A DNA stretch of 35,407 nt from a virus, in the IMG/VR virus record IMGVR_UViG_3300044630_006602, positions 1-35,407 of that record; one strand, given 5' to 3'. How positions within the stretch are numbered: position 1 is the first letter of the stretch; each line of letters starts with the position of its first letter. A model generated the notes under the pieces. That model saw only the letters and a program-made list of their open reading frames with translations, did no database searches and was not told where the DNA came from. The position numbers were made by a program, and so were the translations under genes. Below, piece after piece: positions 1 to 34,560 of the stretch.

Positions 1-147
1 CCATGTTTCTTGCTTGTCACGATGGAAGTGCATGCTGAATTTTGCACCCGTATTAAAGTGCATGAACTTGCTACAGTACTGGTCGTTGGTTGCCCAGATT
101 TCTTCCGAACCCCAACCTTTTTCTACTCTACCTGTCAGTCTTGTCAT
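1..147 (-). CDS. Cupin-domain sugar isomerase-like protein (N-terminal part, runs off window)
   Basis: The minus strand from an ATG at 147 reads 49 codons with no stop and leaves the window at base 1. The visible peptide contains VEKGWGSEEIWATND, then a GKF/HF-type strand and the metal-site pattern SMHFHRDKQETW. This matches the start of the cupin found in type II mannose-6-phosphate isomerases and related sugar-phosphate cupins, where the HxH and Glu residues bind a metal. The start overlaps the stop of the upstream kinase gene as ATGA (144-147), so the two are translationally coupled. The neighbours are HldE-type kinase and nucleotidyltransferase genes and two glycosyltransferases, so a role in making a nucleotide sugar or its precursor is likely. 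With only 49 residues visible, the substrate cannot be named; it could equally be a dTDP-sugar-type or unassigned cupin. Confidence 0.8.
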   Translation of the reverse strand, partial: MTRLTGRVEKGWGSEEIWATNDQYCSKFMHFNTGAKFSMHFHRDKQETW

Positions 148-905
148 TTGATTTCGTCCAGTCTAGGTGCATACACACCTATGTGTTGTACTGTGATTGC
201 TGACGCTTTGTTGGCAAATTTAACAGCATCAGGCATGTGTTTTGTTTCTAAAAATTTGTACACAAGAGCCGCTAAGAATGTATCACCTGCTCCGCATACG
301 TCAGTGACATCTCCCGCAATCTCAGCAGGAAATACCCAACCGTTCCATTCTGCACCATCACTTCCGTGAGTGACAATCAAATGTTCTGTGTCAGGCAAAC
401 TTGTTGCACGACTTTTTTCCAGTGCATTGATCTTGACATAGCAACCTGCTAATCTTGCCAAATCTGTTTTCTTTGTGTCAACAAAGATAGGCACGTTGAC
501 TTCTCGAACCAGTTCTTCTATGAGTTCGTAAGTCACTGTGCCTTTGTTGTAGTCACTGATCACAACGGCATCATACCCGGGAGGTATTGCTGTTTCGAAT
601 GTAATAGGTTTGCCTTCAACATCACGGTCCACACGCAGTAATTGTTGTTTGGTACGTTCGTCAATCAGTCTGTTTTTCTCACTGACCCTATCTTTGTCTC
701 TTATGAAATCAACCACACATCCTAATGCTTCTAGATTATTTTTTACATTGCCTGCCATGCCATCTCGGCGAATGGTATAGTGTGGTTCAAATACTGGAAC
801 CGGTGCTTCGGGACTGATGCGTTTCACATAGCCATATGTGTAAACGTCATTGCAGTCATCACCGATTAACAATATCTTGTATTTTGTTTGTTGTGCTGTA
901 TCCAT
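144..905 (-). CDS. PfkB-family sugar kinase, HldE N-domain-like (heptose-7-phosphate kinase type)
   Basis: This 253-aa protein resembles the kinase half of bacterial HldE/RfaE, which phosphorylates D-glycero-D-manno-heptose 7-phosphate at C1. Visible landmarks are the first strand KILLIGDD (10-17), the HldE signature RISPEAPVPVF (29-39), the substrate-loop segment GMAGNVKNNLEALG (49-62), SDYNKG (117-122), and the PfkB catalytic motif DVCGAGDTF (202-210) whose GAGD Asp is the expected base. The family's kinase domain is usually about 315 residues, so this copy is compact. The ATG at 905 lies 47 bases inside the upstream nucleotidyltransferase gene in another frame. No later in-frame ATG would keep the first beta-strand, so the overlap appears real. 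The stop overlaps the cupin start. The exact sugar substrate is inferred from the HldE resemblance only. Confidence 0.88.
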   Translation of the reverse strand: MDTAQQTKYKILLIGDDCNDVYTYGYVKRISPEAPVPVFEPHYTIRRDGMAGNVKNNLEALGCVVDFIRDKDRVSEKNRLIDERTKQQLLRVDRDVEGKPITFETAIPPGYDAVVISDYNKGTVTYELIEELVREVNVPIFVDTKKTDLARLAGCYVKINALEKSRATSLPDTEHLIVTHGSDGAEWNGWVFPAEIAGDVTDVCGAGDTFLAALVYKFLETKHMPDAVKFANKASAITVQHIGVYAPRLDEIK

Positions 906-1251
906 TTAATCTTTCAAAAAAAACTATTTGTTTGCATATCTCTTGACCAACTATGGGTTTGTCTCGGTAATCTGAACCTTTTACCATAACGTCACATGCT
1001 TGAATGAGACTTGTTAATTCATCGTCTGTGTCAAACACAAACACTTCATCTACACTTTTAAGTGCGCTGAGTATTGTGCCTCTTTCAACTTGAGAATTTA
1101 TAGGTCTGTCAGATCCTTTTAATAACTTAACTCGGTCATCACTGTCAATCCCTACAACCAACCGGTCACCTAGACTTTTTGCATAGTCAAGCAAGGCAAT
1201 GTGTCCTACATGTAGTATATCAAATGTGCCATTCACAAACACTTTCTTCAT
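859..1251 (-). CDS. HldE C-domain-like nucleotidyltransferase (heptose-1-phosphate adenylyltransferase type)
   Basis: This 130-aa cytidylyltransferase-fold enzyme resembles the C-terminal half of HldE/RfaE, which makes ADP-heptose from heptose 1-phosphate and ATP. The sequence shows NGTFDILHVGH (7-17) with the nucleotide-binding HxGH, the segment DRPINSQVERGTILSALKS (48-66), KGSDY (91-95), and the C-terminal FFERLNGYSTTNKI (111-124) typical of the family. I start it at the ATG at 1251, directly before the first strand. The open frame continues upstream to 1338, but those residues have no counterpart in the family and lie inside the preceding glycosyltransferase gene. The ATG overlaps that gene's TGA (1248-1251, ATGA). 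Its own 3' end overlaps the kinase gene by 47 bases. In bacteria the kinase domain precedes this domain in one polypeptide; here the order is reversed and the halves are separate. Confidence 0.9.
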   Translation of the reverse strand: MKKVFVNGTFDILHVGHIALLDYAKSLGDRLVVGIDSDDRVKLLKGSDRPINSQVERGTILSALKSVDEVFVFDTDDELTSLIQACDVMVKGSDYRDKPIVGQEICKQIVFFERLNGYSTTNKIQDIVNR

Positions 1252-2051
1252 TGTGCCCGCCACTGCTTGACATTGTAATGAAACGCACCTGTCTGTGCTA
1301 CTGTTTGTATTCGCAAGCGACAATCCTGATATTCCCAAACCAATTCATCCAACCAATGATCAGTTTGCGTACCAGCTATGTGTCGTTTCATATGCACAAT
1401 CTTTGGGTATGTACTGAATGGCGTTGTGACACGGTCTCGACCCATGATTTCTGCAGCCATGGCATACACTAAGTCAGTTGATGGTGTCTCATCTGGAAAC
1501 TTTATGAGTTTTCGAAACTCTGCCCAATTGGCAAATATGTTGCCTACCCAGCCAAAAAATTCCTTGGCAGTCTCGCTACGCCGCCAGTATGTGATGGCAT
1601 TGTACACGTCAGGCAAGTTGTTGACATCAAACACTCTGCGGTAATGTCTTGCTGTGCTGATGTTATCTTTCCAATCTCTACAGCCTGTGCTAATCACAAC
1701 ATCACGATGTCTGAACTGTGTCCACCAGTGGTCAATGGGACTCACAATAAACATGTCTGCTTCTAGTTTGATAGTTTCGCGAAATGGTGTGAGTGCAAAC
1801 AGTTGTGCATCATTGGCAAATGGGTTGGCATTGGGCACAATCTGTCTGTGATGATCATACAAAGGTTCAGTGTAAGCACGGTCTGTGACTAAACATATAC
1901 GTGCTGACGGATCCCAGTAGCGTATGGTTTTGGCTAGAGTCCTAGCACAATCTTGATAATCTACTGTGTCGCTGTTAACCGCAACAATCACATAACCTTG
2001 TTCGTCAACTGGCTGCAACGATGGCCTCCAGATGTCGTTTGCACATGGCAT
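1248..2051 (-). CDS. GT-A-like glycosyltransferase (second of a tandem pair)
   Basis: A 267-aa protein with the layout of a small nucleotide-sugar glycosyltransferase: a first strand GYVIVAVNSD (19-28), a region resembling RTLAKTIRYW (37-46), ICLVTDRAY (52-60), and the metal-binding neighbourhood KLEADMFIVSP (95-105). EAD here stands where the upstream gene and most GT-A enzymes carry DxD. It is a diverged relative of the upstream gene, sharing the strand / helix / VTD / xAD order. The acceptor is unknown; the ADP-heptose-type genes just downstream suggest a heptose-like donor, but that is inference. The ATG at 2051 overlaps the preceding gene by 47 bases. An in-frame TTG at 2018 has a much better ribosome site (GGAGG at 2025-2029, six-base spacing) and would leave nine residues before the first strand, so the true start may be 2018. 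Confidence 0.7.
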   Translation of the reverse strand: MPCANDIWRPSLQPVDEQGYVIVAVNSDTVDYQDCARTLAKTIRYWDPSARICLVTDRAYTEPLYDHHRQIVPNANPFANDAQLFALTPFRETIKLEADMFIVSPIDHWWTQFRHRDVVISTGCRDWKDNISTARHYRRVFDVNNLPDVYNAITYWRRSETAKEFFGWVGNIFANWAEFRKLIKFPDETPSTDLVYAMAAEIMGRDRVTTPFSTYPKIVHMKRHIAGTQTDHWLDELVWEYQDCRLRIQTVAQTGAFHYNVKQWRAQ

Positions 2052-2823
2052 GAAAATCCAGTCCCTGCCAACTCATGGTTTTCAATCTGCCTTCTGTGTT
2101 GGTGTATGTGATTTCATAATGGTCCTTTTCCGTGCATGTCAAACCATGATCTGGCATGACATTGAGCATGGGCCGAAATATCTCATGCACTGATTGGTTG
2201 GCACCTGCTACCAGGCCCAAGGCAATGCTCAGTGCATAGTCATTGCGATAGTTGTTTTGGTGTATGCCATACAAGTCTCGATAGTGCTGCCAATTGTTGC
2301 GAATCATTTGCATACTATCAAATATGAATTGGCTGACGTTGCCACGACGAAACATCATCACAGTGGCCCACCACATGGGCATCTTGTACTCACCAAATGT
2401 TTCAAGATTGGTCATGCTGCTGGGTTCAAATGCATCTTTAAAGGCTGCGAACTGTTGCGGTATTTTCAATACATCCAACAGTGAGTTACTGGCCACAACA
2501 TAGTCGGCATCCAGTACTATGGTTTGATCAAAAGGTGACAACTCATAGGCATTGATGCGTCCAGCATTGTGCCAGGTCACTGTGGTGCCGTAGTCTGCAA
2601 AGTGTCTTGAGCCACCAGTATCCGGTGCTGTGACGATGATGTGTTCAAATGTATACTTTGCTGCCTCTTCGGGTGCATCTGTGACCACAGCCACAGGCAA
2701 GTCTAAATGGCGGCGAATGTTTTTTGCACTCCACGCAGCCATGGCAAGGTAATCTGTTGCCTCATTGTTGAAGGCAAAGATCACGACACCTTGTGTCAGC
2801 GTTTTTGGTTTAGTTCGTCCCAT
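2005..2823 (-). CDS. GT-A-like glycosyltransferase (first of a tandem pair)
   Basis: A 272-aa protein with GT-A/GT8-like features: first strand QGVVIFAFNNEATDY, a helix with SAKNIRRHLDLP, the strand VAVVTDAP, and the DxD motif in TIVLDADYVV (DAD at residues 105-107 from this start), expected to bind a divalent metal and the sugar nucleotide. I use the ATG at 2823 because it lies about ten residues before the first strand, as in the paralogue downstream. An ATG at 2835 and a TTG at 2856 are in frame and also possible. All three lie within the 3' end of the upstream 102-aa gene, so the genes overlap by 28 bases or more. Donor and acceptor cannot be told from sequence. Together with its paralogue and the HldE-type genes it forms a compact glycan-modification operon. 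Confidence 0.75.
   Translation of the reverse strand: MGRTKPKTLTQGVVIFAFNNEATDYLAMAAWSAKNIRRHLDLPVAVVTDAPEEAAKYTFEHIIVTAPDTGGSRHFADYGTTVTWHNAGRINAYELSPFDQTIVLDADYVVASNSLLDVLKIPQQFAAFKDAFEPSSMTNLETFGEYKMPMWWATVMMFRRGNVSQFIFDSMQMIRNNWQHYRDLYGIHQNNYRNDYALSIALGLVAGANQSVHEIFRPMLNVMPDHGLTCTEKDHYEITYTNTEGRLKTMSWQGLDFHAMCKRHLEAIVAAS
2025..2029 (-). promoter_or_regulatory. Shine-Dalgarno GGAGG that may set a TTG start at 2018
   Basis: On the minus strand GGAGG is followed after six bases by an in-frame TTG (2016-2018) of the second glycosyltransferase. The ATG at 2051 has no comparable site. Using the TTG would cut the overlap with the upstream gene from 47 to 14 bases. The same GGAGG also lies inside coding sequence of both frames, so chance occurrence cannot be excluded. 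Confidence 0.4.
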
Positions 2824-3104
2824 TCCACTTTCCATGCATTCATTTGTTCTTGCCAACGTTCGTGTGCTCGAGCAAACAAGTCTGTCACAGTGATTTTTAC
2901 TGGAGTCTCATACAAGTCTAGTATCACAACATCCTTGTCCTGTGCGCAGGCCAATAGCACAGTCAACAGTTCCGGTCCTGCACGCCACATTCCACCGGCG
3001 TGGGCAAAAACCATTTTGGCTTCGTATTTCTCTTTGAGCACACGCCGGGCGGCTGCATGATCAAATCGGGCTCGTGCGTGAGCAACTAGGGCATCAGTAT
3101 TCAT
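2796..3104 (-). CDS. Small conserved phage protein of unknown function
   Basis: A 102-aa hydrophilic protein without signal peptide or membrane segment. It begins with a helical Ala/Arg-rich stretch (NTDALVAHARARFDHAAARR), continues with a compact core (MVFAHAGGMWRAGPELLTVL), a strand VVILDLYETPVKI, and ends with a helix rich in Trp, Glu and Gln. I believe similar short proteins occur in T4-like marine phages without an assigned role, but I cannot confirm this here. It is the first gene of the glycan block, starting just after the terminator of the structural block. Its ATG lies only five bases downstream of a TATAAT hexamer and no Shine-Dalgarno is visible, so its mRNA may be leaderless. Its 3' end overlaps the first glycosyltransferase gene. 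Confidence 0.8.
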   Translation of the reverse strand: MNTDALVAHARARFDHAAARRVLKEKYEAKMVFAHAGGMWRAGPELLTVLLACAQDKDVVILDLYETPVKITVTDLFARAHERWQEQMNAWKVEWDELNQKR

Positions 3105-4121: not shown

Positions 4122-5948
4122 TTACTTGATAGTCACAATTGCTTCAATTGTGCCCAATTCTGCAGTGTGTTTGTTTTCCAGTGAGCGACCAATCACATTG
4201 AATGCTGTGGCTTCGCCTGGCTGTGCTGCTCTAGCAACACCTTCGCCAGCACTCACAAGACGATCACCTTTGCGTACTGTGCCCACACATTTTACAGGAA
4301 CTCGACCTGTCATTGCAACCGCTGGGTGAGTGTCATCTTCTCCAGCGCCGCCGTTCATTGTGTAGGCTGGTCTTGTACTTATAACCCCAAACACATTTTC
4401 GCTTAGATCTTCAGTAGATCGAGTGATTTCTTTTGCGCCACCCAATTCTACAACTGTGCCAGGTTCCAACACGTCATCAGCAGCAAAGCGTTCTGCAACG
4501 TCAGCGTATAGTGCTGTGGTAGCAGTGGCAAACACACGGTTAAAGTAGTTGCTTGATGACCCAATGTTACCAATTGCATTGGTGCCAGTTTTCTCAATAC
4601 CGATTGTGCTGACGTTACCGGCAAAAAATGCGGTACCTGATGTGAGCACCAGTACATTACTGGTTCCAGCAACATTGAAGTTGACATTGCCGTCGGTGAC
4701 GCCAATATTGCCTTCTGTGACGCCGTTGACAAATTTGGTAACGCTGACACCCAAACTCAATCCTGTGAGTTGTGATCCGTTGCCCAAGAAGAATGTGCCT
4801 GCAATATTTGCCTGACTGGTTATGTTACCAGTGGCACTGACTTGTCCACTAGTTCGCAGATTACCTGCTTGCACATTGGCTGTGGCGCTGAGTGTAGCAC
4901 CTTGTACCAGTCCAGCAGTTAATATGTTACCACCAGTGATGTTTCCAGTGGCACTCACTTGCCCGCCAGTGGTCAAGTTGCCACCAGAACTGTTGCCAGT
5001 TACGCCCAGTGTTGTACCTACTGTGGCAGCATTTGAAATTGCAAATGTACCATTGCTGCCCAAGGCTTGCGCCACATTAAATGTGGTACCGCTGACATTG
5101 GCTTGAATAATCAAATTACCACCAGAGATGTTGCTCTTGATGTTGGCATCAGTTGTGGTGGTATTGACGTTGAATACGTTGGCCGCACCCACAAACATCC
5201 CAGTGTTGTTTTGTACACGTAAAATACCTGTTGTGGCAGTGTTGGCATCTGCCCGCATGAATTGCGAACTGTCTAAACTGTCTAATAACTGTGCATTTGT
5301 AGCTGATCCAGCAAACACTGCACCTGCCACTGAAGAACTAAGGGTCACGCCTGGAAAGATAGTAGGGAACGCTGAAGCAACAGATGCCTCAGGCGTAAAA
5401 CTTGCACTGTAGTACACAATAGCAACACGCACGTTTTGCACATACAAACTGGTAATATATTTTGTGGCTCCAACGTTGTCTAAAATTGTTTCAGGAATAG
5501 CACCTGATGTGCCTTGTGCGCTGGAATACCCAGGCCCGACCACAATAAATGTTCCCGGATTGCCGCCCACAGTACATACATTGAGTTGTTGATTGGTAGT
5601 ACTGTACCACAAATCACCAACCACACTGGGGCTGGGTTGACTGCTGCTGGATGTGGCAGAACTAATGGTTTTCCAGCCCCCTGTGCCAGAATACACCTTG
5701 AGCAATGTATTGGTTTTATCCCACCACAACTGTCCAACCAACGGAGAATTCAATTGTGCCACAGTTGGATTGCCACCTGAACTTGTACTGGAAAAATTCT
5801 CCAGCATCTGGATAAAGTTTTCGTCTAAAAATTCACCGTATCCGGCGTAATTTTTACCTACCAAAGTCAAACTTGAACTGGTGTTGGTTGTACCGTCTGC
5901 AATGGTTGCAAAAACTGTGCCGTCGGTTAGATTGATTGTATATGCCAT
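4122..5948 (-). CDS. Tail fibre protein with C-terminal chaperone/autoprocessing-like domain
   Basis: A 608-aa protein. The N-terminal part has a motif seen in T4-like fibre proteins: ENFIQMLENF (43-52), then PLVGQLWWDKTNTLLKVY (69-86), echoed by VVGDLWYSTTNQQLNV (109-124). The middle is a Gly/Asn/Thr-rich repeat region with recurring SGQVSATGNIT units, likely a beta-helix or beta-prism shaft. From about residue 480 (YADVAERFAADD) to the end lies a domain like those ending many phage fibres, with EPGTVVELGG, GVISTRPAYTMN, TGRVPVKCVG and VRKGDRLVSAG. These are compared with the Peptidase_G2 / intramolecular-chaperone type; self-cleavage is not shown by the sequence. A perfect late promoter lies 22 bases upstream and AGGA precedes the ATG. 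Host recognition is the expected role. Confidence 0.85.
   Translation of the reverse strand: MAYTINLTDGTVFATIADGTTNTSSSLTLVGKNYAGYGEFLDENFIQMLENFSSTSSGGNPTVAQLNSPLVGQLWWDKTNTLLKVYSGTGGWKTISSATSSSSQPSPSVVGDLWYSTTNQQLNVCTVGGNPGTFIVVGPGYSSAQGTSGAIPETILDNVGATKYITSLYVQNVRVAIVYYSASFTPEASVASAFPTIFPGVTLSSSVAGAVFAGSATNAQLLDSLDSSQFMRADANTATTGILRVQNNTGMFVGAANVFNVNTTTTDANIKSNISGGNLIIQANVSGTTFNVAQALGSNGTFAISNAATVGTTLGVTGNSSGGNLTTGGQVSATGNITGGNILTAGLVQGATLSATANVQAGNLRTSGQVSATGNITSQANIAGTFFLGNGSQLTGLSLGVSVTKFVNGVTEGNIGVTDGNVNFNVAGTSNVLVLTSGTAFFAGNVSTIGIEKTGTNAIGNIGSSSNYFNRVFATATTALYADVAERFAADDVLEPGTVVELGGAKEITRSTEDLSENVFGVISTRPAYTMNGGAGEDDTHPAVAMTGRVPVKCVGTVRKGDRLVSAGEGVARAAQPGEATAFNVIGRSLENKHTAELGTIEAIVTIK
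4824..4982 (-). repeat. Imperfect direct repeats in the tail-fibre shaft
   Basis: A 42-base unit at 4824-4865 recurs with substitutions at 4941-4982, both encoding a GQVSATGNIT-type segment. Related but more diverged GGN/LTTG units flank them. They are in-frame protein repeats of the fibre shaft and could allow length change by recombination. Confidence 0.6.
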
Positions 5949-5969: not shown

Positions 5970-5977
5970 TATTTATA
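5970..5977 (-). promoter_or_regulatory. Late promoter TATAAATA for the tail-fibre gene
   Basis: The minus strand carries a perfect T4-type late -10 element TATAAATA, 22 bases before the ATG at 5948, leaving room for a short leader with an AGGA ribosome site. The element contains the TAA stop codon of the upstream 202-aa gene. It is the best match to the late consensus in the window. Confidence 0.8.
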
Positions 5978-6581
5978 CAGCATTTATGTTGCTCAGCGTC
6001 TGTATACGCAGGGTATAGTCGATTTGAATCTGTCGATTCAAACTTTTTTGCACCGGGTGAAAAATCACGTGTGTAATCAAGCGCAGATTATCCACAGACC
6101 CGTTCCATGTTTTTAACCCAAGTTCGTCAAACACAAACTCGCCATTGAAATTGGTCGAGTTATCAAATGCCTGTTGTTCAGGGGGTTCGCCGTAGTCCAG
6201 CAAACAAGTCACAAGAATATCACTGTATACATTGCCACTGGTATGTAACGCAGTCATTTTGTTGTTTTCAGGGTCTGTGTCAGCAGCTGAATTATCATCA
6301 ACTACTTTGGCGTAGGTTTGATTGTACAAGTCAGCGTTTTGTCCTGTGGTGTTTGGGGGCAAGTATGTGATGACACCTGTGGGATCAACCGAACTGCCGC
6401 CGTTGCCGAATGCCATTTGATAAATGTATCCGGTGTTACGATCACTCAATGTTTGGGCCATGGCCAAACTGATGTTTTCATAGTGAATAGCGTTCTTTTT
6501 GTCCACCAGTACTTCACCAGTTTTGGGATCGTGTATCTTGACGAATCCTTCAATTTTGCACAGTCCAGGCTGGATAATCAT
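5973..6581 (-). CDS. Virion-associated protein of unknown function (202 aa)
   Basis: A 202-aa protein starting with GLCKIEGFVKIHDPKTGEVL, followed by KKNAIHYENISLAMAQTLSD and a beta-rich middle with MAFGNGGSSVDPTG and ending in a strand-rich segment (FHPVQKSLNRQIQIDYTLRI). There is no signal peptide or catalytic motif. Its position between the giant structural gene and the tail fibre, plus the beta-rich sequence, suggest a baseplate or fibre-attachment component. Its first 20 residues resemble the C-terminal half of the 48-aa gene just upstream, with which it overlaps by four bases (ATGA). A strong GGAGG precedes its ATG by seven bases. The final codons run into the late promoter of the tail-fibre gene. 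Confidence 0.8.
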   Translation of the reverse strand: MIIQPGLCKIEGFVKIHDPKTGEVLVDKKNAIHYENISLAMAQTLSDRNTGYIYQMAFGNGGSSVDPTGVITYLPPNTTGQNADLYNQTYAKVVDDNSAADTDPENNKMTALHTSGNVYSDILVTCLLDYGEPPEQQAFDNSTNFNGEFVFDELGLKTWNGSVDNLRLITHVIFHPVQKSLNRQIQIDYTLRIQTLSNINAV

Positions 6582-6724
6582 GCTCTGCCCTCCACATAAG
6601 TTTTTTGGGTTTTTGGATCAAAAATTCTCATGTGAGCCTGGACACTAATACTGCCCGTTTCGTTCGGGCGGCGTGGTGCAGGCTGAGCCTGCTGCTTGGT
6701 CTGATCTTGTGATGTATTTGCCAT
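6578..6724 (-). CDS. Small protein (48 aa) sharing a motif with its downstream neighbour
   Basis: A short minus-strand gene from ATG at 6724 to TGA at 6578, encoding 48 residues. It has a Gln/Pro-rich N-terminal half (TSQDQTKQQAQPAPRRPNE) and then ISVQAHMRIFDPKTQKTYV. This last part parallels the start of the following 202-aa protein (IEGFVKIHDPKTGEVLV), sharing the pattern I-x-x-x-x-h-[KR]-I-x-D-P-K-T. It fills the space between the giant gene and the 202-aa gene: a NATAAATA element sits seven bases upstream, its stop overlaps the next start, and it carries that gene's ribosome site. This packing and motif support a real gene. Function unknown; a virion linker or assembly partner is possible. 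Confidence 0.75.
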   Translation of the reverse strand: MANTSQDQTKQQAQPAPRRPNETGSISVQAHMRIFDPKTQKTYVEGRA

Positions 6725-6731
6725 GGTCAGT

Positions 6732-6739
6732 TATTTATC
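6732..6739 (-). promoter_or_regulatory. Late promoter GATAAATA abutting the 48-aa gene
   Basis: The minus strand reads GATAAATA in the 19-base gap between the giant gene's stop (6744) and the next ATG (6724). It matches the NATAAATA late element. Only seven bases separate it from the ATG, so the transcript would have almost no leader; no Shine-Dalgarno is visible. Confidence 0.6.
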
Positions 6740-6743
6740 CGTG

Positions 6744-9700
6744 TTATCTGTCACACAAAAACCTTGCGGCCACTGTGTCGGTTTCTTGCAACGGTTCGCC
6801 GTTACTAGGTGTACCTGCACCTGGTGCATACCAAGTTGCTCCGCGACGTTGTAAAATAGTTACTTCACTGCCTGCTGCAGGCGCTGAATATGTGCCATCA
6901 ACAATGAATTCAATGGTCAATGGATCAAACAACGACACAATCCAACGATATTCGCTGTTGGCTGTGGTATCACTGTAGTTGTATTGGCGTATTCCGCCTA
7001 CATAAACTTCAATGCTTTCTACGTATATGGTGCTTGAATCGCCAAAATCAGCAATGTCAATATTAGGAGCATAAAATACTGCGGTGGTTCCATCGCCCAT
7101 GCCCGAGTCTTTGACTATGTAATCTTGATAAATTTGATTCAACAAATTACCCGAACCAATGTCATACACTTCTGCCCCAATTATGTGGGCAGCAGCAGCC
7201 GTGCCAGCTGTGCCTCTTTGCAATCCTGATATTGTATTATTAGGTACATCTCGATAACGATACATGATGCGTTCGCCGTCAATGGTCACGACTCCAAACA
7301 CACCAGCCGGCAGGTCCGGTTGAGTCAGAGCAGAAACATTTTCTACGTAAATTACGTCTGCGGTGGCACTCAGTGGTTGTGTTAACACTGTGGTGGTAGC
7401 ATTGGTTATTCTATACGTGGCCTGAACTCCGCGCATGTCTTGGAAAATACGGAATGCTGCTGCTTCGGGCACAATTGAATTGGTAAATTCCGTCACAATT
7501 AAAATTTGAGTACTACCAATGGCACCTTGAGCCAAAATTAAGTATTGCCCTGAAATGGTATAATCGTTGCCTTCAAACAATCTCAGGCCATCCAATGTCA
7601 CCCACAATCTGCTGGCGTCAAGATCAGTGCGCAGTAAATCGAAATCATTTGTTGGAACTGATGTGCCAACTTCATAGGCAAACTGTCCTGGCAATGGCTG
7701 GAAAACATCATTCAATGTTGGACTGTCATAATCTGTGGTATCATAAGGTTGATAGATGGTTGTACCTGTTTGAACTGGACCAGTAAATGTCAATGTCAAC
7801 GCATTTTGTTGAGCAGTGTCATTCCACGTTATTACTTCAATTTTGTTGCCTATATTCAAAACAGATGAGATTTGCAATTGATCTGTAAAATCTGGACCGG
7901 ACGGGTTATACGCAAATTTACATTGTGCTATGGTGCTCACAGAAATCAATATCACCGCACCGTCGGCTGGCACAGCCTCAAAAACTACTTGTCTCCCAGG
8001 AGTGTTGCTACCATTGTAGTTGGTAACACTGTATGTTCCATCTTGTGCGCCAAATGATTGTTGCTGTAGCACACCGTCAACCCAGACTTGAATATCATTT
8101 ACTTCATCAATTGATGCTTGAGAAAAACTGGTTCCCATGCGTTGAGGCAAGCCAAAACTATTAGTGGTGCCATCACCAATCCATTCTATACCACTGGGTC
8201 CTAGCACACGAACTCCATTGATGTTGACCACCATGTTGGCAGGATTTGTACCTATCGGTGCTTGAGCAAGAGTCACCGAGCCATTGTCAATTATTTCTTG
8301 ATCAACCACAAATGTTTCAATTACTGGTGTACTCCAACTTTGGAAAGTAGTTGGCGTAAATTTTGCTATCAATTCCCCGGCCCAGGTGGCCTGATCATCT
8401 ATTAGAGAAACTTCTGTGATTCCATCTTCTGTGATAGTAATAGCATTGATTGAATCACTGACAATTGTTAAAATTTGATACACTGTGTTGGTTTGTACTC
8501 CTCCTAGACTATATCCTGAGAATGTTACTGTTTGTCCTACACTGAGAGTATCAAGACTGCCTAACAGCACAATAGCATTGCCTTGTTGTTGTGTATCTGT
8601 CACAGGGATGCTGGTTGCAGCGCCAAGTACCAATACAGATATACCATCGGTGGCAGAAATAGACGCTGTGATTGTGCATTTAGTTCGAACAGAAGGAATA
8701 AACGGCAGCCAATAATCAGTATTTGTTAACGCAATACCTGGTGGCACAGTTTGAATAGATCTATAGTATGTGCCCTGGGGAGATCCAGTCATGGTACCCG
8801 AAGCAGTGGTCAGTGCCACCAAAGTTGCACTGCCAGCAGTGTCAGTTATATAAAACTGAGTGCCATTGGCAATCAGTTGCACATAGTATTTTTGTCCAGA
8901 TACTATTCCACCAAACACAGTGCCAGAGAACACAATAGGTTGACCTACGGTCAACGCACTGGTACTGTTACATGTAACAACATTGAATGCTGCTGTGGTA
9001 TTGGTTACGGTAATTTCATTATCATTAAAAACTACGTCAACTGTTTGATAACTGTTGTCCTGACTCCATACTTGACTGTCAGTGTATGGTACTGTTTCTG
9101 GGTTGGCCACTAATTGGCCATTGACAAACACATTGGTGCTGACTATTTGAGAATACCCTACTGGTAAAATTATACTATTGTCTGTGGCAATGATTTCACT
9201 GCCTGTGTAGTTACCTCGAAACAATTGGTCACCACCACCAATTTCATAAACATCAATACTGATAACATCAAACGCAGTTACCCCGGCATCTATAGTTACA
9301 TACTGTTCACTCCAATTAATAGTATAATCGATGTCCTGTGTCAATACCAGTCCAGTTGTTAAATTTGACACTACTAAATTAAAAGGATATTGAACAATAT
9401 TGGCCCAACTATAATCAAGTGTGATACCTGGCTCAAATGTATAACGTTTTGTTCCAATTTGGAAACCATGTCCATTGTTCAGCCAGTCAGATCCTGGGCG
9501 TGTGTAGATACGCAGATCTAAGGTGTCGTATTCGGCTCCATTGATCAATTCTTCAGGAGCATGACCTTCGTAGGGTCCAACAAACTCACCGCCGTCTACA
9601 TTGATATCTGAGAACCGTGTGCCAAGATAAATGTCAGCAAATTCACTTTGATAGTTGGCATCTAATGTTCGATTGTCGAGAAAGTATTCGCCCCAGACCT

Positions 9701-12700
9701 GGACTCCAGGATAATCTACGCCATTTACCAGCAATGGCAATTCTAATCCAGGTTCATTTACACCTGGCACATACAAGCCCATGGTACGGTCAACCCCGGT
9801 CAATCCAGTGGGAGTTGAACTACCGGGATAGGTGTAGGTGGCCGCATCGACCAGTTGCCAGTTTTCTAAATCAAATGTTGGGCCTACTACTGCGCTGCTG
9901 CCGTCGGCATTTTGTGCAGACCACACACGATTATCGTAACGAACCAAGGTACCATTTTCATAAGTTCCTTCACTGCTCCAAGTCTGAACGATGGTTTGAT
10001 ACTGGAATCTATCATACTTGATCACTGTACGGAATTGCCGCACAACATCATTGGTCATTCTTGGATATGCTACCGCTCCAGATCCGTTGCCGCCGCCGAA
10101 AATCACAGTTGGTGTAGATCTATATCCTGCACCGCTTACAGTTACATTGATTGCAACTACTTGTCCTGCACTGTTTAAAATTGCAGTTGCTTGTGCCATT
10201 GTGCTGGGCGCAGGATCATTGGGGTTGGCTACAATTTCAACTTCAGGGGGTTCAGTGTATCCTGATCCTCCATCAATCAAGTCAATGGAATCCAGTCTCA
10301 ACAAATAGTTGTTGTACCATTGACTGTATGGCCAAGATGACCACACAGTGGAATTGGCCGGCAAATCACTGAGATTATTTGTGTCAGCATTGAGTGCGGT
10401 GCTGTGATTGTATGGCAACAATATTGGACTGGTAAATTGCGGAACTTGCAAACTGGTATTGTAATATGCTGGTAAATCAAAATCAGCCATGTCACCAAAG
10501 TACTCATCAAACCCGTTGTAACGCAGATTAAACTCACGTATTTGAACATGATATGGTTTAACTTCTTGAATGTAGTCCAACACAAATTCTTGATTGTCAC
10601 GACTGTAATTTTGGAATTGTGTCAAACTACGAATTCTATGTTCAACATCAATCAACGATGTTTTTACCAGCCATTCGGGGGCAGCAAATTCACTCAGCAC
10701 AAAATTAAACATGCCAGTAAGGCTGCGATTTCGTTCGATCAATAAATCGTCGATGAACAGTTCTTCGTTGATGGCTTGAATAATTTTGCGTGTTTCAATC
10801 ACAGGCTCTTGGTCAAAATATTGTGCATCAAACACTTCAACGTCAAATCCAAATCTTCCAAGTGCATAATCCCACAACTCTGCAGAAAATTCAATTGTGC
10901 CATCTTGCAACCCAACACGGTCAAACCCAGTGGCTGTGCGTAGATAAATTTCAAATTTTCCTTGGCTGTTGGCTGTAACTTTGACACTGCTGCCTACCGC
11001 AACATTTAGCGTGTTCAAGGCGGCCACATTAGGAACCTCAGCAATAATTTTAGTGCTGCTGTTATAACCAGGTAGATACCAATTGATGTGACCCCAATAT
11101 TGTGTAGTGTCATAGTTCTGAACCTGTGTCAACTGCACTATACGCACAGGTCCGTCCACGGTGAACTGTTCAATTACTTTATATATGGTCCATAATCCAC
11201 GATTGCTGGCATCACTTTGAACCAAATATTTGTAACCCAATGGAACTGCATTTAAATTTTGAAACCCTAAAATTTCTAGGTTAGCAACTTTTTTATTCCA
11301 GTTCACTGTGGTAATTCCACCAACTGTGGTGATTGCACTGGGTTCAGGTTCACTGCTGTTCAACAATACAAATTGGCGATTTTCTACTATGGGATACAAT
11401 GCCAATACAGAATTCGCACGAGTCAAATAATTTTTAAGTGCAGAAAATCTATCCACAAACATACTTTGCCGCGGACGGAATTGTACTCCATAGCGTTCAG
11501 CTGGTCCAAGATTTACATCAGGCACTAAATTGCCATATGTATCTACTCCGCAGAAACTGTCTTGCATCTTACGATACAAATTGCTACTGATAAATGCATC
11601 TTCTCGACCTTGTGCTACTAACTCATACTCCACATGAACATTGTCATCTGTGAGTTCTTTATCAAATTCAATACTGATAATTGTGTCAGACGCTTGAATG
11701 TAGTCACCAGCATTGTACAATGCAATGGTGCTTGAGTTAATGGGAGCAATATAAGTTATACCACTTGCTCTGGGATTTTCAATGTAATCAGCCACAGTGC
11801 TGACTGACAATGTTTTGCCTTTTTGTGTAGCGGTGGCGGTGATACCTCGTACCCAGAAATAATATTCTGTGTTAAATGACCCAGTTTTACTCAACACTGT
11901 GTTGACCACATAACTGACGGAGTTAAAAGGAATTCCTTCTCCAATGTAAGCCGCAGGAGGCGTGTTGCTGACTGTCCATTGATACACATCCACTGTGCTG
12001 CCAGGAAATACTTGTCCCCAACGACGGCTTGCATACACAATGTCATCTTGGTTGGGATCAATAAATCTTACTGTGCTGGTATCCCACCAAGTTTCTCCCA
12101 CACGATCTTGACCCCAGGTTGTGCCGCGGATGCCAGTTGGCCCAACATTGTAACTTGCAGGATCCACTGCACCAATGTAATCTAAATTTTGTCTGGCAGC
12201 GCCAAGTATCTTTCCTTGCAATGGATCAAAGAAATCATAATATTGTGTAGTAGCCGATGTGATTCTGTCATATGAATACACAGAATTCAACAATCTCACA
12301 TCCACCACTGGTTTTTGTTCTCTCAACATGGTCCAAGCCGGAACACGAGTGTCATTAGTGCTGACAAATACTCGACCATAATTGGCCAGCATGGTGCTGT
12401 CGCCTAATTCATTTCCTGGTGCACCTGTGAACAATACTCCATCAGTGTAGTTTACTGCGGTGCCGTATTGATCGTAAGTCTGCACATCTGGGTTGCTAAT
12501 TTGTTGTCCAAACACAAACTTGTCAGGATTGGTCACTGATGAACTTGAACTGGTCACAAAATCATAGGTGTAAACTGCCCCGCTTTGTATAACCTGGTCA
12601 AAGAAATCTGTAGCACCTTCGTCCCAGTCTGTGTTGTTCAAGTCCCAAACTGTGATCAAATACAATGTGCCGCGAGGCGCACCAACTACTAAATTCACAG

Positions 12701-15700
12701 CCGAATCATCAATACTGACGCTGGTACCAAACCCAGCATAGTCTATAGGATATGGACTTTCAATGGTTTGTGTAAACACAAATGTTTCAAATTCAAGATC
12801 AGCAAACGCGGTACCAATAGAACCTGGTGCTACATTTAATTTGTCGCCAATTGGCGCAGCATCTGAATTTTTAACTGCAATGGTCAGGTAACCTGCAACA
12901 TCAACAGTGGCCTGAACATTTGGAACATCTGCATTTATTTGTGCAGCCAGGCCACGAACTCGTGCGCTGGCAGCAACTGTGGTTGTGGTGATCACTTGCC
13001 AATACGAAGTGTTGGTCAATGCAGTAGCAGCCGGAACACTTTGCAAACTCAAATATATTGTGGTTACTGTATTAACAGTGTTATACACCACAGTATTTGC
13101 AGAATAGATTGTTGAGATGTTCCATGCACCAGGAACCACAACATCTTGGTTGTTGACTCTGAGTGTATCACCGTTGTCTATGACAGCATTGGCCACTGTG
13201 TTGGTAATAATACCAAATGCGCGGCTTTGATTGACATTGCGCTCAACCACTCCGCCTTTGAAAATTTGCACACTGCTATTAGGCACGCCCACATACAAAC
13301 TGCAATTATAACTGCATAGGTCAGTGTCGTAACCGTAATTACTGAATTCTTCAATGGTGTTTTGATTGATTGTTTGCACCAGAGCGAAGCCATTGGTTTC
13401 AATGTCAATCAAATCGCCTACTTGCAAATTAGCAAGAATGGTAATGGTATTTCCACTCACTGAGAATGTATTTGTTTGCCCAGGTGTTGCAGATTTCTCA
13501 TTAACTAAAAATGTATTGTTGACCAGCACACTAACTGGCTCAGCCACTGAACCAAGCACTGTAAAAGTCACTGTTGACCCGTCTGTACCGTAGATAAATC
13601 GTTGTACATCTCTATCGTACACATACACTGTGCCTGCTTGTGTATAGGTATCGCTGGTCACCGGATCAGTGTACGTGGCATTGGGTGCGCTAATCAGTAT
13701 CTGTCGACCATCTGTGCCAGTGCTGACTGAATAGCCAAAATTGTCTCCACCAACACTTGCCGGATTGGTTATCGTTCCAGCATATTGGAAGTACCCTTCT
13801 GCTCGCACAAGAATAGTTGCACCAGCCACAGGAGAACTTGCGGCCACAAAAGTCATATCGCCGGTGTTATTATTAAATGTATAATCAATGGTGGGACGTT
13901 GTAATACATCGTCAACAAACACAGAAAAACTGTTGAGGTTATCGGCGGTGTACAGGTATTCATTCAATGAGAATGTCACTGTCAATGGCGGAGGGGTATA
14001 ACTTGGTGTGCCGTTGATTGCGGTGATTATTCCACTGTTTTCAGTGATAGGAAAAGTAATGTCATTGGCAGGACTCGAGCCGCCATCAAAACTTGCTGCT
14101 GGTATTGTTATAGTATCGCCAGTGGTGTACCCTGTGCCGCCGTTTTCCACACTCACTGTCACTGTTCCGCGGATTCTTGTGACCACAAACGTTGCGTCAG
14201 ACCCAGACCCGCCGGTGCCTGCTACTCCATAATAAACCTGGTAGTCCAGCAGTTTACGACTGGTTCTAGTTATTTCAACAGAATCATCAAGCGCAGGAGC
14301 AACAGCAAAGTCCACACTGGTAAACGAATTTGTCACATTATAATCTGTGCCAACAACAAGTACAGCACCTGCTACCACAACAGTAAGTTGAGTATCCGCA
14401 TCAATTTTAATATCTTCGCCAATATAGTAGGAAGTAGTGGCTCCATCACCTAATGTTTGTACACGTTGACGTTCCCAGTCTACACGACCATATGCATACA
14501 CCGCATTAGCACCTGGTGCTCCAACATACAACCAACGTTCGTCCTGACTGACCACAACACTTTGACCAAACAATTCAGCCGCTGTGGTTGATGTTGGTGA
14601 TGTCAACATTTGCCATTGTCCGTACGGGATAGTGCCTGATGCACCAAGTTGTGGATCTCGATAAATTACCACAGCATACCCATTGTCAACTGCGCCAGTT
14701 GATCCTAAACTGTTAGGAGCACCGGCTGCGGCCCAGGTTTGATTGCCAAAGTCTACCGATGTGCCATATCCACGTGCTGCTGTTTGCCCATTGAAAGGTC
14801 CGCCACTGACGTCTAATATGTCCAAACTCAACACTGCATCATTGGGAGCCAATGGACTGATTGGTGCGTATACATTGCTGTCACTTTTGACGTACACATA
14901 TACACCACCACGACGTGGCAAAGATGTCAATGAATAAGGTGTCCAATATGCCGTGTTATAGATGCTGATGCCTTGCGGCACAGGTGCAGGTGCATAGAAA
15001 AATTCAGTTTGATACGGATCAGGAATATAAACAATAGAAAATTCCACATACTCGTTGGCAATGTTCCATTCAGTTGCTCCCACTGGGAAACGATACCGAG
15101 GGCTACCTACCAGCGCCGCAAAACGATTTTGTGCTTGCGCCACAGAAGTGCCGTACTGTTCACCTTCATCAACTTCAAATGGAGTAAGGCTCAACAGTTC
15201 TGTAAACACTTCTTCTTTTTGTAACACGGACCACAGGCCGGCACCGTTGTTGTCAACCCAAACTTTAGCACCAGGTGCTATTGTATTGGCATATGGCAGA
15301 TTCAAAATATCACTGGCCTGAGCAACCCGTTGAGTTTTTAAAGTAAACCCAAGTCCTGTACCATTGACCACGGTGCGACTGCCAGTGAAACTAAATGCAA
15401 TAGTAACTGTGTTGAGATCCACAATACTCAGCACTGTGTATACGCCGTTGACTTCTGCGTCAAAGAAACGTATGATCAACTTGTCATTGACAGCAAGATT
15501 GTGTTGTTGAGAAAATATTGCTAAACTGGTTCCGTCTAAATTGTCACAGATATGATCAATAGTACCTGGTACAGATTCTGATCTATAAATTGCCCAATCG
15601 TAAGAATTAATTTTTGCAACACATATATTGGTTCCTACCCCAATTTGATTGATGTTTGCGGCCAAACTGTCTGTGTTATCGATATCAAACACAGTGATAT

Positions 15701-18700
15701 CCACATCATCCAAATTCACATACCCAGCACTGGGCAATGCAATATCTGTAGGCAATGTGTTGGTCACCGGCAAAATGTCAGGAGATGTTATTTTATAACT
15801 TTCTCTCCAGATATCTGAAAACAATATTGTCTGATCTGCTTGACTGCTTTGTTGCGGATTGATAATTTGCACCAAACTGGGATTTGAATCTAGTAGCGCA
15901 CGATTCAATTGAAGTTGGAAAAAACTTCTGTTGGCATTTGCGCCGTATACAGCACGTTGAACTGCCCAGTTTTCATAGATGTTATAATCTGCTGATTCTT
16001 TTCCAAGATTGGCCTGTGAAAATAATTCAGCACTGAGTATGGTACCTTTGCTGCCAAGGAATTGTCTATAAATGTTTAATTGACTTACATCATCAAGATT
16101 CAATGATGTCATGTATTGACGAGGACGGAATCCAATTAGTCCGTAACTCAACAAGTCGTTGTCTTGTTCAAGATTGCCACTGTTGATATCATAACTGCTT
16201 TGCAGTTGGTCTGCTTTGTTGGCCAAGTTAGGCAACAGTCCCAGTTCAATTTGAGTGTAGTCGCTGGCCAGCCAGTCATTGGCATTGAACACTGCTGTGG
16301 GTTGTACAATTGCTGCTGCCGACCAGTATGCACCTTTGTATTTGACAATTTGTCCTTTGGTATAAGTGGCATCAGAATTCCATTCTTGAATGTTGTCCTG
16401 ATTGAGAATAAAACCTTGCGCATCCACTGAGCCATTCCACTCTGTTGTGGTCACAGCAATCAAATTTAGTCGACTTTGGCGAGCACCTGTTGTTGGCTCA
16501 TAAATCAAATCGCCAAACACACTGGCATTGTCCAGCACTATCATGTGCTCGTAGGCAGTGTATTTTAAATCAATATAACTCAATGTTTGATCTGTGGCAG
16601 GCTCAACAGTGAATGTATTTTCAATGCGAGTAATGATCAAATTGCGTGTTTGCAATTCTTTTTTGTTTTGATCCAACAAAATGTTTTCTGCAGTTTGTGC
16701 TTGGATACTGTCGACCACAGCCCGGTCACGAGAAATGCTGAGTTTGAATGCCAGTGGGTTGAGATTGATCAATGCTTGTTCGTCCCATCCTTGTTGGCTC
16801 CAGTACAGGAATTCATTGACCATTTGTCCCCAACTCAAAATATATCCGTTGGCGGTGTCTTCAAATGTTAGTCCCTGACGTTCAAGGTATTTGCCATAAC
16901 TTAACAAAAAGTCACTGACTGATGTGATGTCAGAAAATATGTAACCATAAGGAATTTGTGCGACTGTGCCAGTGTAGAATGTAGGCACACGCACTGTGGC
17001 ACCACCTGCACTGTAAGTTTGCAGTTGTCCTGTGAACTGACTTTGTAGTATGTTAAAATAAGGTTGTGTGGTGCTATATCCAAACACTGCATATCCGCCG
17101 GCAGTTTTTTGTATTACCACTGATGAATAACTGGCTCGGTCAAACGGCTGATTTTTATACAACAAAAGATTGTAACTTTGATCAGGAATCAAGAAAGTTG
17201 TATTGGTAGAATTAGGGCTGGACTTTTCTGTGTAAATTTTGATATACTGTTTGTCTGAAAAACTGGCCATTCTATAGCACAATCTCACATCCAATGCGCC
17301 AAGGTCAGCAGTGAGGTCAGCAGTGCTATCCACACCACTTTGACGATTAAAATCCACAATCCAATCAATGTAACTGGCTTTACTTGTGCCATCTCCGTAT
17401 ATTTCCAAGTCGTTGGCATTTAATCTATAACGGTTGTTGTACAAATATTGATTTAAATCTGTATCAAACTTGTACAAATCTCTGTCAGCAAACAGTGCAA
17501 AGAATTTAGCAGGGCGTGTCAACGCCAACAGTCGCATGACTGCAAATGGATATGCACTTGAATTCCACCAGGATGCTTCTACAGGTCCACCGTCACCTAT
17601 TGCCCAACTCTTGCGGAATGCTGTTTCGTTGTAATTGCCCACTACACTATCAAAAGGACTCAATAGTTCGCCTTCGGTGCCTGTGGGTACAACAGTGGTC
17701 AATCCTGAACGTGCATATTCAGGCAAATAGTACGAAGCAACAGGATCTGCCACGTAGCCCGCTTCCAAGTCATCCCACAACACCAAGTTATCTTGCGTGT
17801 ATGGTCCTGTGCCGTAGGTAGAGTCCCACCAAGAAGGTTTTACAGTAAATCCTAGCATCTCCCAGGGCGTCTCTTGAGGTTGTTGAGTGTCATAGTAGTA
17901 ACGATTAATCCCGCGCCAGGCGCCAGGCAATGGATCATTGTTTAATTTACTTTGCGCACTACTGTAATTCCATGTGAACTCGTTGGTTGCAGAATAATTT
18001 TGTATTCGATAATCTAATTTGTTCCAGGCCACATAACTCAAAAAGTCTGTGCTCAAGATATTGTTGATCTGAGCCATGGTATAGCCAGTGGTCCTGAACT
18101 GTCCTGGCAATACATCTGTCACAGTCAACGGAACTGGGTTTCCATCTAACTTGAGGTTGCTGAAAATTCTAGTTTCAAATTCCAACAACACTTCATCTCT
18201 GATATCACCAAATGTTTTTGTCACACTACCATCATGACCAATTATCACTGTCTGTGTGCCTGAACTGGTTTTTTGGGTAACTATTTCTGGTCGATATGCA
18301 GGATACAACCCTAATTTTGTTGGAGTGTTTGGCACAAAACTACCAAAGGTAGAAGTATATTCTTGCAAGGTCAGCACATTGCCCAACGTCAGATCGACCA
18401 ACACTGTGATTCGAGGACCATCTGTGGCCACAATGTAATCTCTATCACGCACAAGAATTGTATCATTGAGGTAAACGTTCATACCCTGGTAGTTGGCCGA
18501 AGTATAGTTGTAAACTTGTGCAGTATCAAACACATCTGAAGTGGTGTTTGATATGGTGTATGTTGTGGTAGTAAACACTGATCCAGCGGGAATCATGTCA
18601 CTCCAATAGAATGGTTGAGACGACAGTCGACCAAGAGTGATGTCTGCTAATGCAATATCTAATACTTCACCAGCAGTTTGTTGTTGTACAACTTGTTGAG

Positions 18701-25679: not shown

Positions 25680-25687
25680 TATTTATT
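25680..25687 (-). promoter_or_regulatory. Late promoter AATAAATA for gp6 and the giant gene
   Basis: The minus strand reads AATAAATA, matching NATAAATA, 20 bases before the gp6 ATG at 25660 in the 46-base gap after gp25. Unlike the sites abutting starts elsewhere in the window, it leaves room for a leader of about a dozen bases, though only a weak ribosome site is visible. Confidence 0.6.
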
Positions 25688-26086: not shown

Positions 26087-26094
26087 TATTTATG
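26087..26094 (-). promoter_or_regulatory. Late promoter CATAAATA abutting gp25
   Basis: The minus strand reads CATAAATA within the 21-base gap between the 577-aa gene and gp25. It matches the NATAAATA element, and only five bases separate it from the gp25 ATG. Transcription would start at or next to the start codon, and there is no Shine-Dalgarno. Confidence 0.55.
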
Positions 26095-34552: not shown

Positions 34553-34560
34553 TATTTACT
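34553..34560 (-). promoter_or_regulatory. Weak late-promoter-like element AGTAAATA
   Basis: The minus strand reads AGTAAATA, one base off NATAAATA, five bases before the ATG at 34547. Its distance to the start codon matches the sites before gp25 and the 48-aa gene. As first gene of the block, this gene needs a promoter and no other candidate is seen nearby, but the mismatch lowers confidence. Confidence 0.4.

What the first reader, a model, noticed from the sequence alone, without database searches (positions are those of the whole stretch)
6578..6724. Unlisted 48-aa gene that shares a motif with the N-terminus of the next protein
Both proteins contain I-x-x-x-x-h-[KR]-I-x-D-P-K-T followed by a Tyr/Leu-Val strand. 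The short one has a Q/P-rich tail before it. The genes overlap by ATGA. This suggests partial duplication, perhaps giving two proteins that compete for or share a docking site on the baseplate or fibre.
Basis: partly seen in the sequence, partly recalled or inferred. Interest (0 to 1): 0.5.

Follow-up and report, generated by a model that had tools for sequence, protein, structure and literature searches.

The report
Baseplate adaptor's detached N-terminal peptide gene
In this giant bacterial virus a tiny 48-residue gene is a detached copy of the front end of the neighbouring tail-tip protein; relatives carry that front end either as a separate gene or attached to the big protein, so the virus seems to need the piece but not the attachment.

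Summary
The 48-aa ORF (6578-6724, minus) is a real gene: a variable disordered tail, a PNExG motif and a conserved C-terminal beta-hairpin. It was found in 80 of 80 close viral loci, with dN/dS 0.09 in frame. The hairpin is homologous to the first hairpin of the 202-aa neighbour: 26.9 bits against at most 5.8 in 2000 shuffles, profile-profile E 2.5e-9.

New result: other relatives lack the small gene, and their 202-aa homolog itself carries tail and hairpin. Of 283 distinct loci, 190 have the separate gene, 84 the tail on the big protein, 9 neither at threshold, 0 both. The states seem to have interconverted several times (5 changes; AU p=0.016 against one two-gene clade). So tail and hairpin appear to work in cis or in trans.

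The 202-aa protein lies in a T4-type baseplate operon and modestly resembles tail/baseplate-periphery proteins. The small start lies 1-9 nt after a T4-late-promoter-like TAAATA in 189 of 190 loci, suggesting near-leaderless mRNA. Virion presence, docking partner and stoichiometry are untested. Partial duplication is supported; competition for a docking site is not.

The parts
6578..6724 (-). small gene, 48 aa (tail + PNExG + hairpin), stop overlapping the next start as ATGA
6644..6724 (-). residues 1-27 of the small protein: variable disordered Q/P/K-rich tail ending in PNETGSIS
   Evidence: alignment A1; no secondary structure predicted there
6584..6643 (-). residues 28-47 of the small protein: conserved hairpin VQAHMRIFDPKTQKTYVEGR; the ORF ends one residue later
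   Evidence: (strands 32-36 and 41-45)
5973..6581 (-). 202-aa protein, phrog_11259, probable baseplate-periphery / fibre adaptor
6495..6554 (-). residues 10-29 of the 202-aa protein: homologous first hairpin IEGFVKIHDPKTGEVLVDKK
6589..6593 (-). GGAGG, Shine-Dalgarno-like site of the 202-aa gene, inside the small gene's V-E-G codons
   Evidence: a site in 108 of 116 loci
6732..6739 (-). GATAAATA, T4-late-promoter-like element ending 7 nt before the small start codon
6744..22205 (-). giant 5153-aa virion structural gene directly upstream (context)
   Evidence: a long ORF ends 10-22 nt before the small start in 79 of 79 testable close loci
4122..5948 (-). 608-aa protein downstream, weak matches to tail-fibre families (context)

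Best explanation
The small gene is a detached tandem copy of the 5' end (disordered tail + PNExG + first beta-hairpin) of the neighbouring adaptor gene. In single-gene relatives one protein carries tail, hairpin and body; here the tail-bearing hairpin is made separately and the adaptor keeps a hairpin without tail. Most likely both are late baseplate components: the hairpin of the small protein docks in the same kind of beta-sheet site as the adaptor's own hairpin, and its tail reaches a neighbour (perhaps the giant wedge protein), so that tail function and body function are divided between two proteins (subfunctionalisation). Expression would be split too: the small start lies directly behind a late promoter (near-leaderless, no Shine-Dalgarno), while the adaptor's Shine-Dalgarno lies inside the small gene. 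Shown: a gene under selection, homology, the cis/trans exclusivity, the promoter-like and SD-like sites. Inferred: direction of evolution, virion location, docking, stoichiometry.
For: Small ORF in 80 of 80 close loci; dN/dS 0.090; homology of hairpins; tail+hairpin on the big protein where the small gene is missing; 190 / 84 / 9 / 0 of 283 distinct loci with small gene only / tail on big only / neither / both, and 89 / 64 / 9 / 0 of the 162 loci whose body DNA was new in the second round; repeated interconversion on body trees; single-gene hairpin intermediate between the two types (mean score -3.4 against +20.3 and -19.9); counterparts of 41-42 aa in PA5oct and Atu_ph07 at the same place; T4-type baseplate neighbourhood and MS-detected relative in the PA5oct record; fold matches to A511 gp105, phi812 arm and phiKZ gp139; start-adjacent TAAATA and internal SD.
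Against: No virion, binding or complex-structure data. The PA5oct counterpart is not annotated as MS-detected though its neighbours are. Small and own-partner hairpins are no more alike than shuffled pairs, so co-adaptation is not visible. Fold matches are modest (Foldseek PDB best E 0.037; Z 4.9-8.6, where the tool says Z under 8 may be only a common arrangement). The small protein's model has low confidence (pTM 0.21). Several giant phages (Phosso, SCTP-2, Vibrio 2.275, RaK2, Munch) have neither a recognisable small gene nor the PNExG tail, so the module is not universal. Transfer of the 5' end between phages could mimic interconversion.
Confidence: 0.55

Rival explanations
1. The small protein competes with the adaptor for one docking site (a plug or regulator).
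For: Homologous hairpins and adjacent, overlapping genes.
Against: Single-gene relatives carry the tail on the adaptor itself and have no separate competitor (84 of 283).
Confidence: 0.15
2. The small ORF acts mainly as a translated leader: its near-leaderless translation opens or couples to the Shine-Dalgarno of the 202-aa gene, and the peptide itself is incidental.
For: ATGA overlap (77 of 80 printed; the same ATGA in L027, L029, L032) and SD inside the small gene in 108 of 116 loci.
Against: Amino-acid constraint over the whole conserved part (dN/dS 0.090); 80 of 190 two-gene loci have no ATGA overlap; an endonuclease-type ORF separates the genes in some; the same residues appear fused to the adaptor elsewhere.
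Confidence: 0.1
3. The two-gene form is a scar of homing endonuclease insertion near the 5' end: the gene was split and the downstream part rebuilt with its own hairpin; the upstream stub was then kept.
For: GIY-YIG/NUMOD3 gene between small gene and adaptor in Atu_ph07, SegE-type in L217, similar-sized ORFs at the same place in L196, L200, L203; in Atu_ph07 the stub's start resembles the start of Phosso's single gene (sequences, by eye).
Against: On the body tree the insertion-bearing loci scatter among insertion-free two-gene loci (5 separate changes for 5 rows), so later insertion into an existing two-gene arrangement is equally likely; L196 and L200 ORFs match no Pfam family at E 0.1. It explains origin, not function.
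Confidence: 0.15
4. The small protein is an assembly chaperone for the adaptor or fibre and is absent from the virion.
For: Small genes near fibre genes are sometimes called chaperones (63-64 aa proteins tabulated as 'Chaperone' in PMC11406892, passages seen); PA5oct gp356 carries no MS note.
Against: In single-gene relatives the segment is a permanent part of the adaptor; a chaperone need not be.
Confidence: 0.1
5. Chance ORF with a coincidental motif.
For: The two single sequences do not align by BLASTP.
Confidence: 0.01

Closest known systems
PA5oct gp356 (41 aa) + gp357, and Atu_ph07 gp179 (42 aa) + gp177
   Same: A 41-42 aa gene between the giant structural gene and the 202-aa homolog, matching the small-protein profile (17.4 and 19.0 bits); PA5oct also has GATAAATA 5 nt before the start
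   Different: Much diverged; annotated only as hypothetical proteins. In Atu_ph07 a GIY-YIG/NUMOD3 gene lies between the two, the PNExG tail is missing and the C-terminus runs on past the hairpin
A511 gp105 / phi812 arm protein (baseplate wedge 3, proximal tail-fibre part)
   Same: Similar overall fold to the single-gene relative of the adaptor (Z 6.6); [quoted passage not shown]
   Different: No sequence similarity found; Z in the range of common arrangements; the small genes next to it were not examined
phrog_22784 (76 aa, function unknown)
   Same: Weak match of small-protein residues 21-44 to its positions 46-69, E 0.011
   Different: Below any safe threshold; members not seen
Gene fission / fusion and subfunctionalised partial duplicates in general (recalled, no call)
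   Same: One-protein and two-protein versions of the same set of segments
   Different: Here the detached unit is only a tail and one hairpin, kept in duplicate on the other protein, and the exchange seems to have happened several times

Membership tests
phrog_11259 (for the 202-aa protein) | match to the family profile | tested here: met
   E 1.6e-71, residues 9-195 on profile positions 13-208 of 383
phrog_11259 / 202-aa family (for the 48-aa protein) | beta-sandwich body after the first hairpin | tested here: not met
   the ORF ends right after the hairpin; no match to phrog_11259 listed for it
phrog_11259 / 202-aa family (for the 48-aa protein) | homologous N-terminal hairpin | tested here: met
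phrog_22784 (for the 48-aa protein) | match to the family profile | tested here: inconclusive
   E 0.011 over 24 residues
A511 gp105-like wedge/arm proteins (for the 202-aa protein) | shared fold | tested here: inconclusive
   model of relative L209 against 6hhk and 9fko: Z 6.6 each, 123-127 residues, rmsd 5.4-5.7
A511 gp105-like wedge/arm proteins (for the 202-aa protein) | position in the virion between wedge and receptor-binding proteins | not testable with these tools
   only gene context: baseplate families upstream, weak fibre-family matches in the next protein
T4 late promoter (for GATAAATA at 6732-6739) | TATAAATA-like octamer before late genes | tested here: met
   five minus-strand TAAATA in the window, all 5-21 nt before ORF starts; motif and its -13 to -6 position from PMC1524935 (passages)
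T4 late promoter (for GATAAATA at 6732-6739) | late transcription start 6 nt downstream of the element | not testable with these tools
   no transcript data

The most novel reading that the evidence does not exclude
A phage baseplate module in which a beta-hairpin of the adaptor is supplied in trans by its own mini-gene, completing or flanking the adaptor's beta-sheet by strand donation. The ratio of tail-bearing to tail-less hairpins would be set by near-leaderless against Shine-Dalgarno translation from one late mRNA, and the module would switch repeatedly between one-gene and two-gene forms, perhaps through homing-endonuclease insertions at the junction.
Probability: 0.15. Interest if true: 0.7.

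Novelty: new variant of a known kind. Interest (0 to 1): 0.5.

Why it matters
It shows that an easily overlooked 5-kDa ORF is a constrained part of a giant phage's baseplate region, and that a 45-residue segment can be exchanged between cis and trans. That is a natural experiment on which parts of a baseplate adaptor must be covalently joined, and it gives a handle on stoichiometry in giant phage tails. The start-adjacent late-promoter-like elements make near-leaderless late mRNAs in such phages directly testable.

Tried and rejected
tblastn of the small protein against 50,697 phage records found nothing at E 10, so the PA5oct and Atu_ph07 counterparts were found by position. PDB sequence searches with both profiles gave nothing useful (one hit at E 1.1; none). 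Foldseek against PDB was weak (best E 0.037). Pfam gave no family at its cut-off for either protein.

Rejected: recent duplication or visible co-adaptation (own hairpin pairs 0.346 identity, shuffled pairs 0.354; 1871 of 2000 shuffles as high; a look at paired hairpin variants showed no clear link); the idea that the single-gene hairpin derives simply from the small one (it is intermediate); chance ORF. A single origin of the two-gene state is disfavoured (AU p 0.0162), but I had seen earlier trees when naming the group, the bootstrap had not settled, and well-supported branches force 3 of the 5 changes.

Literature searches were narrow and none asked for this gene pair itself, so I make no claim that it is unpublished. 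The main texts of two RaK2 papers do not contain gp063-gp065 (PMC10253068) or gp63-gp65, gp064, orf64, orf064 (PMC3622015). phiKZ gp139 was not followed in print (listing only).

Caveats on counts: the first set of loci is biased, since each keep the 80 best of about 600 matches. Loci L094-L173, fetched with the small protein itself (80 of 255), were not counted. Loci with identical DNA were merged (378 loci to 283); the same rule on body DNA alone gives 282: 189, 84, 9, 0. In one search the start codon was allowed to be any in-frame ATG ahead of the hairpin, so it favours a close TAAATA; without that freedom the count is 111 of 116 small and 17 of 23 single-gene loci within 30 nt. Rows over 90% identical were thinned and PA5oct, SCTP-2, GAP32 and PBECO4 left out of the second tree, Vibrio 2.275 also out of the third. 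L200 was left out of the big-hairpin profile. L203's inserted ORF was not scanned against Pfam.

Full report
What is there. On the minus strand a 48-aa ATG ORF (6578-6724) lies between a 5153-aa structural gene (6744-22205) and a 202-aa gene (5973-6581) and overlaps the latter by ATGA. Genes upstream match T4-type baseplate families (wedge subunits, hub/lysozyme), and the first 500 residues of the giant protein contain a stretch of a 'baseplate wedge tail fiber protein connector' family. The 202-aa protein is phrog_11259 (E 1.6e-71) and has relatives in 60 phage records, among them RaK2, PBECO4, PA5oct and Atu_ph07. In the PA5oct record the relative carries an ESI-MS/MS note. The window is a 35,407-base virus record, probably a fragment.

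Is the small gene real? In 80 of 80 loci fetched with the 202-aa protein the same small ORF precedes it. In 79 of 79 with enough flank it starts 10-22 nt after the end of an ORF of over 300 aa; L048 had too little flank. The last 28 or so residues are conserved (PNExGxIxVxxHxRIFDPxTxxxxVExR); the first 15-20 vary in length and are rich in Q, P, K and N. Over 63 distinct DNA sequences and 1271 pairs (not independent) dN/dS is 0.090 in frame; other frames give 0.25-3.3 and contain stops. The N-tail is looser (pN/pS 0.41, 134 pairs), and the last 150 codons of the 202-aa gene are about as constrained as the small core (pN/pS 0.096).

Is the shared motif homology? But a profile of 62 small proteins scores the 202-aa protein at 26.9 bits against at most 5.8 in 2000 shuffles, is significant for no other of 16 window proteins, and aligns with 19 tail-less 202-aa homologs at E 2.5e-9. 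Against an alignment that includes single-gene forms the E-value is 5e-15.

The key finding. In a wider scan some relatives have no small gene, but their 202-aa homolog begins with the same tail, a PNExG-like motif and the hairpin, e.g. L218 at E 1.7e-15 to the small-protein profile. In the first 139 loci, 116 had the separate gene and 23 the single gene. Three more sets were fetched as a test. Over 283 distinct loci, 190 had the separate gene only, 84 the tail on the big protein only, 9 neither at threshold (short N-termini), and none both. Counting only the 162 loci whose body DNA was not already in the first round, the numbers are 89, 64, 9 and 0. A whole-record search of 19 records found no separate small gene in the eight single-gene records, among them one of 328 kb and one of 197 kb; one weak extra hit (E 0.002) lies inside an 1181-aa frame of one of them. 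These records may be incomplete.

History. On a quick tree of the body alone, single-gene forms lie at the base, and the two-gene forms lie in a 50-row clade (SH-aLRT 95) that also holds 11 single-gene forms; that tree warns of long branches meeting. The careful tree of 83 rows needs 5 changes, 3 of them forced by well-supported branches, and the AU test gives p 0.0162 against one two-gene clade. The first tree gave a similar picture (fused label 6 changes, 4 forced). Recombination of the 5' end between phages would look the same. The hairpin of single-gene forms is intermediate between small-type and big-type hairpins, as expected if two copies diverged from a dual-purpose ancestor; small and own-partner hairpins are no more alike than random pairs, so the split is old where seen. 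Endonuclease genes lie between the two genes in Atu_ph07 (NUMOD3, GIY-YIG) and L217 (SegE GIY-YIG), and similar-sized ORFs in L196, L200 and L203, of which L196 and L200 match no Pfam family. Whether insertions caused the split is open.

Expression. The small start has no Shine-Dalgarno-like site in 114 of 116 loci, the 202-aa start has one in 108 of 116, and single-gene starts lack one in 21 of 23; in the window the site GGAGG lies in the small gene's V-E-G codons. TAAATA lies 1-9 nt before a possible small start in 189 of 190 loci (the exception, L335, lies at a contig end) and before the start of 60 of 93 single-gene forms within 12 nt; several of the remaining single-gene forms shown there have TAAATA further up followed by an AGGA-like site. 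With starts fixed beforehand the count was 111 of 116 for small genes. For the next gene after the 202-aa gene, found in 264 loci, TAAATA occurs within 60 nt in 202, in every case more than 9 nt before the start. In the window TAAATA is rarer than chance (8 against 17 expected), and the five minus-strand copies all lie 5-21 nt before ORF starts. The T4 late promoter TATAAATA occupies -13 to -6 (PMC1524935, passages read); if the spacing holds here, the small mRNA would be leaderless or nearly so. That is inference.

Structure. AlphaFold2 of the single-gene relative L209 gives a disordered first 20 residues, a hairpin (28-35, 42-48), a helix and a beta-rich body (pLDDT 73, pTM 0.69). The small protein alone gives only the hairpin 32-36/41-45 (pLDDT 64.5, pTM 0.21). 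Structure comparison points to tail and baseplate-periphery proteins: HFTV1 tail chain Z 8.6, phiKZ gp139, phi812 arm and A511 gp105 Z 6.6 each, Bas63 connector 4.9; Z below 8 may be only a common arrangement. [quoted passage not shown] In the viral library 24 models match at E 0.001 or better, mostly uncharacterised phage proteins. A 48-aa entry there (A0A6J5LV91, E 0.3) may be the small gene in UniProt; not checked.

Reading. The small protein is a detached N-terminal module of a baseplate adaptor that can be supplied in cis or in trans. Homology, constraint and the cis/trans exclusivity are shown; direction of change, virion location, docking and stoichiometry are inferred.

Noticed in passing
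window 34553-34558, 26087-26092, 25680-25685, 6732-6737, 5970-5975 (minus): All five minus-strand TAAATA copies lie 5-21 nt before ORF starts; three of them (before 34547, 26081 and 6724) end only 5-7 nt before the start codon, as if those late genes were near-leaderless.
   Followed up: partly
L217:2295-2984, L082:2252-2965, and ORFs in L196, L200, L203: Endonuclease-type genes (GIY-YIG/NUMOD3 in L082, SegE-type in L217; the others of similar size but without a Pfam match or not scanned) sit exactly between the small gene and the adaptor.
   Followed up: partly
L074:3001-3780: This adaptor carries an extra C-terminal extension of Gly/Ser repeats.
   Followed up: no
L089:2968-4176 and L090:2956-4152: The XacN1 and RAS14 relatives of the adaptor are about 400 aa, with a long insertion in the body.
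   Followed up: no
window 20706-22205 (minus), residues 183-304 of the giant protein: The giant 5153-aa protein contains a stretch matching phrog_677, baseplate wedge tail fiber protein connector, E 2e-16.
   Followed up: no
window 144-2856 (minus): Three proteins downstream look by eye like a sugar kinase and two glycosyltransferases; recalled resemblance, no search made.
   Followed up: no
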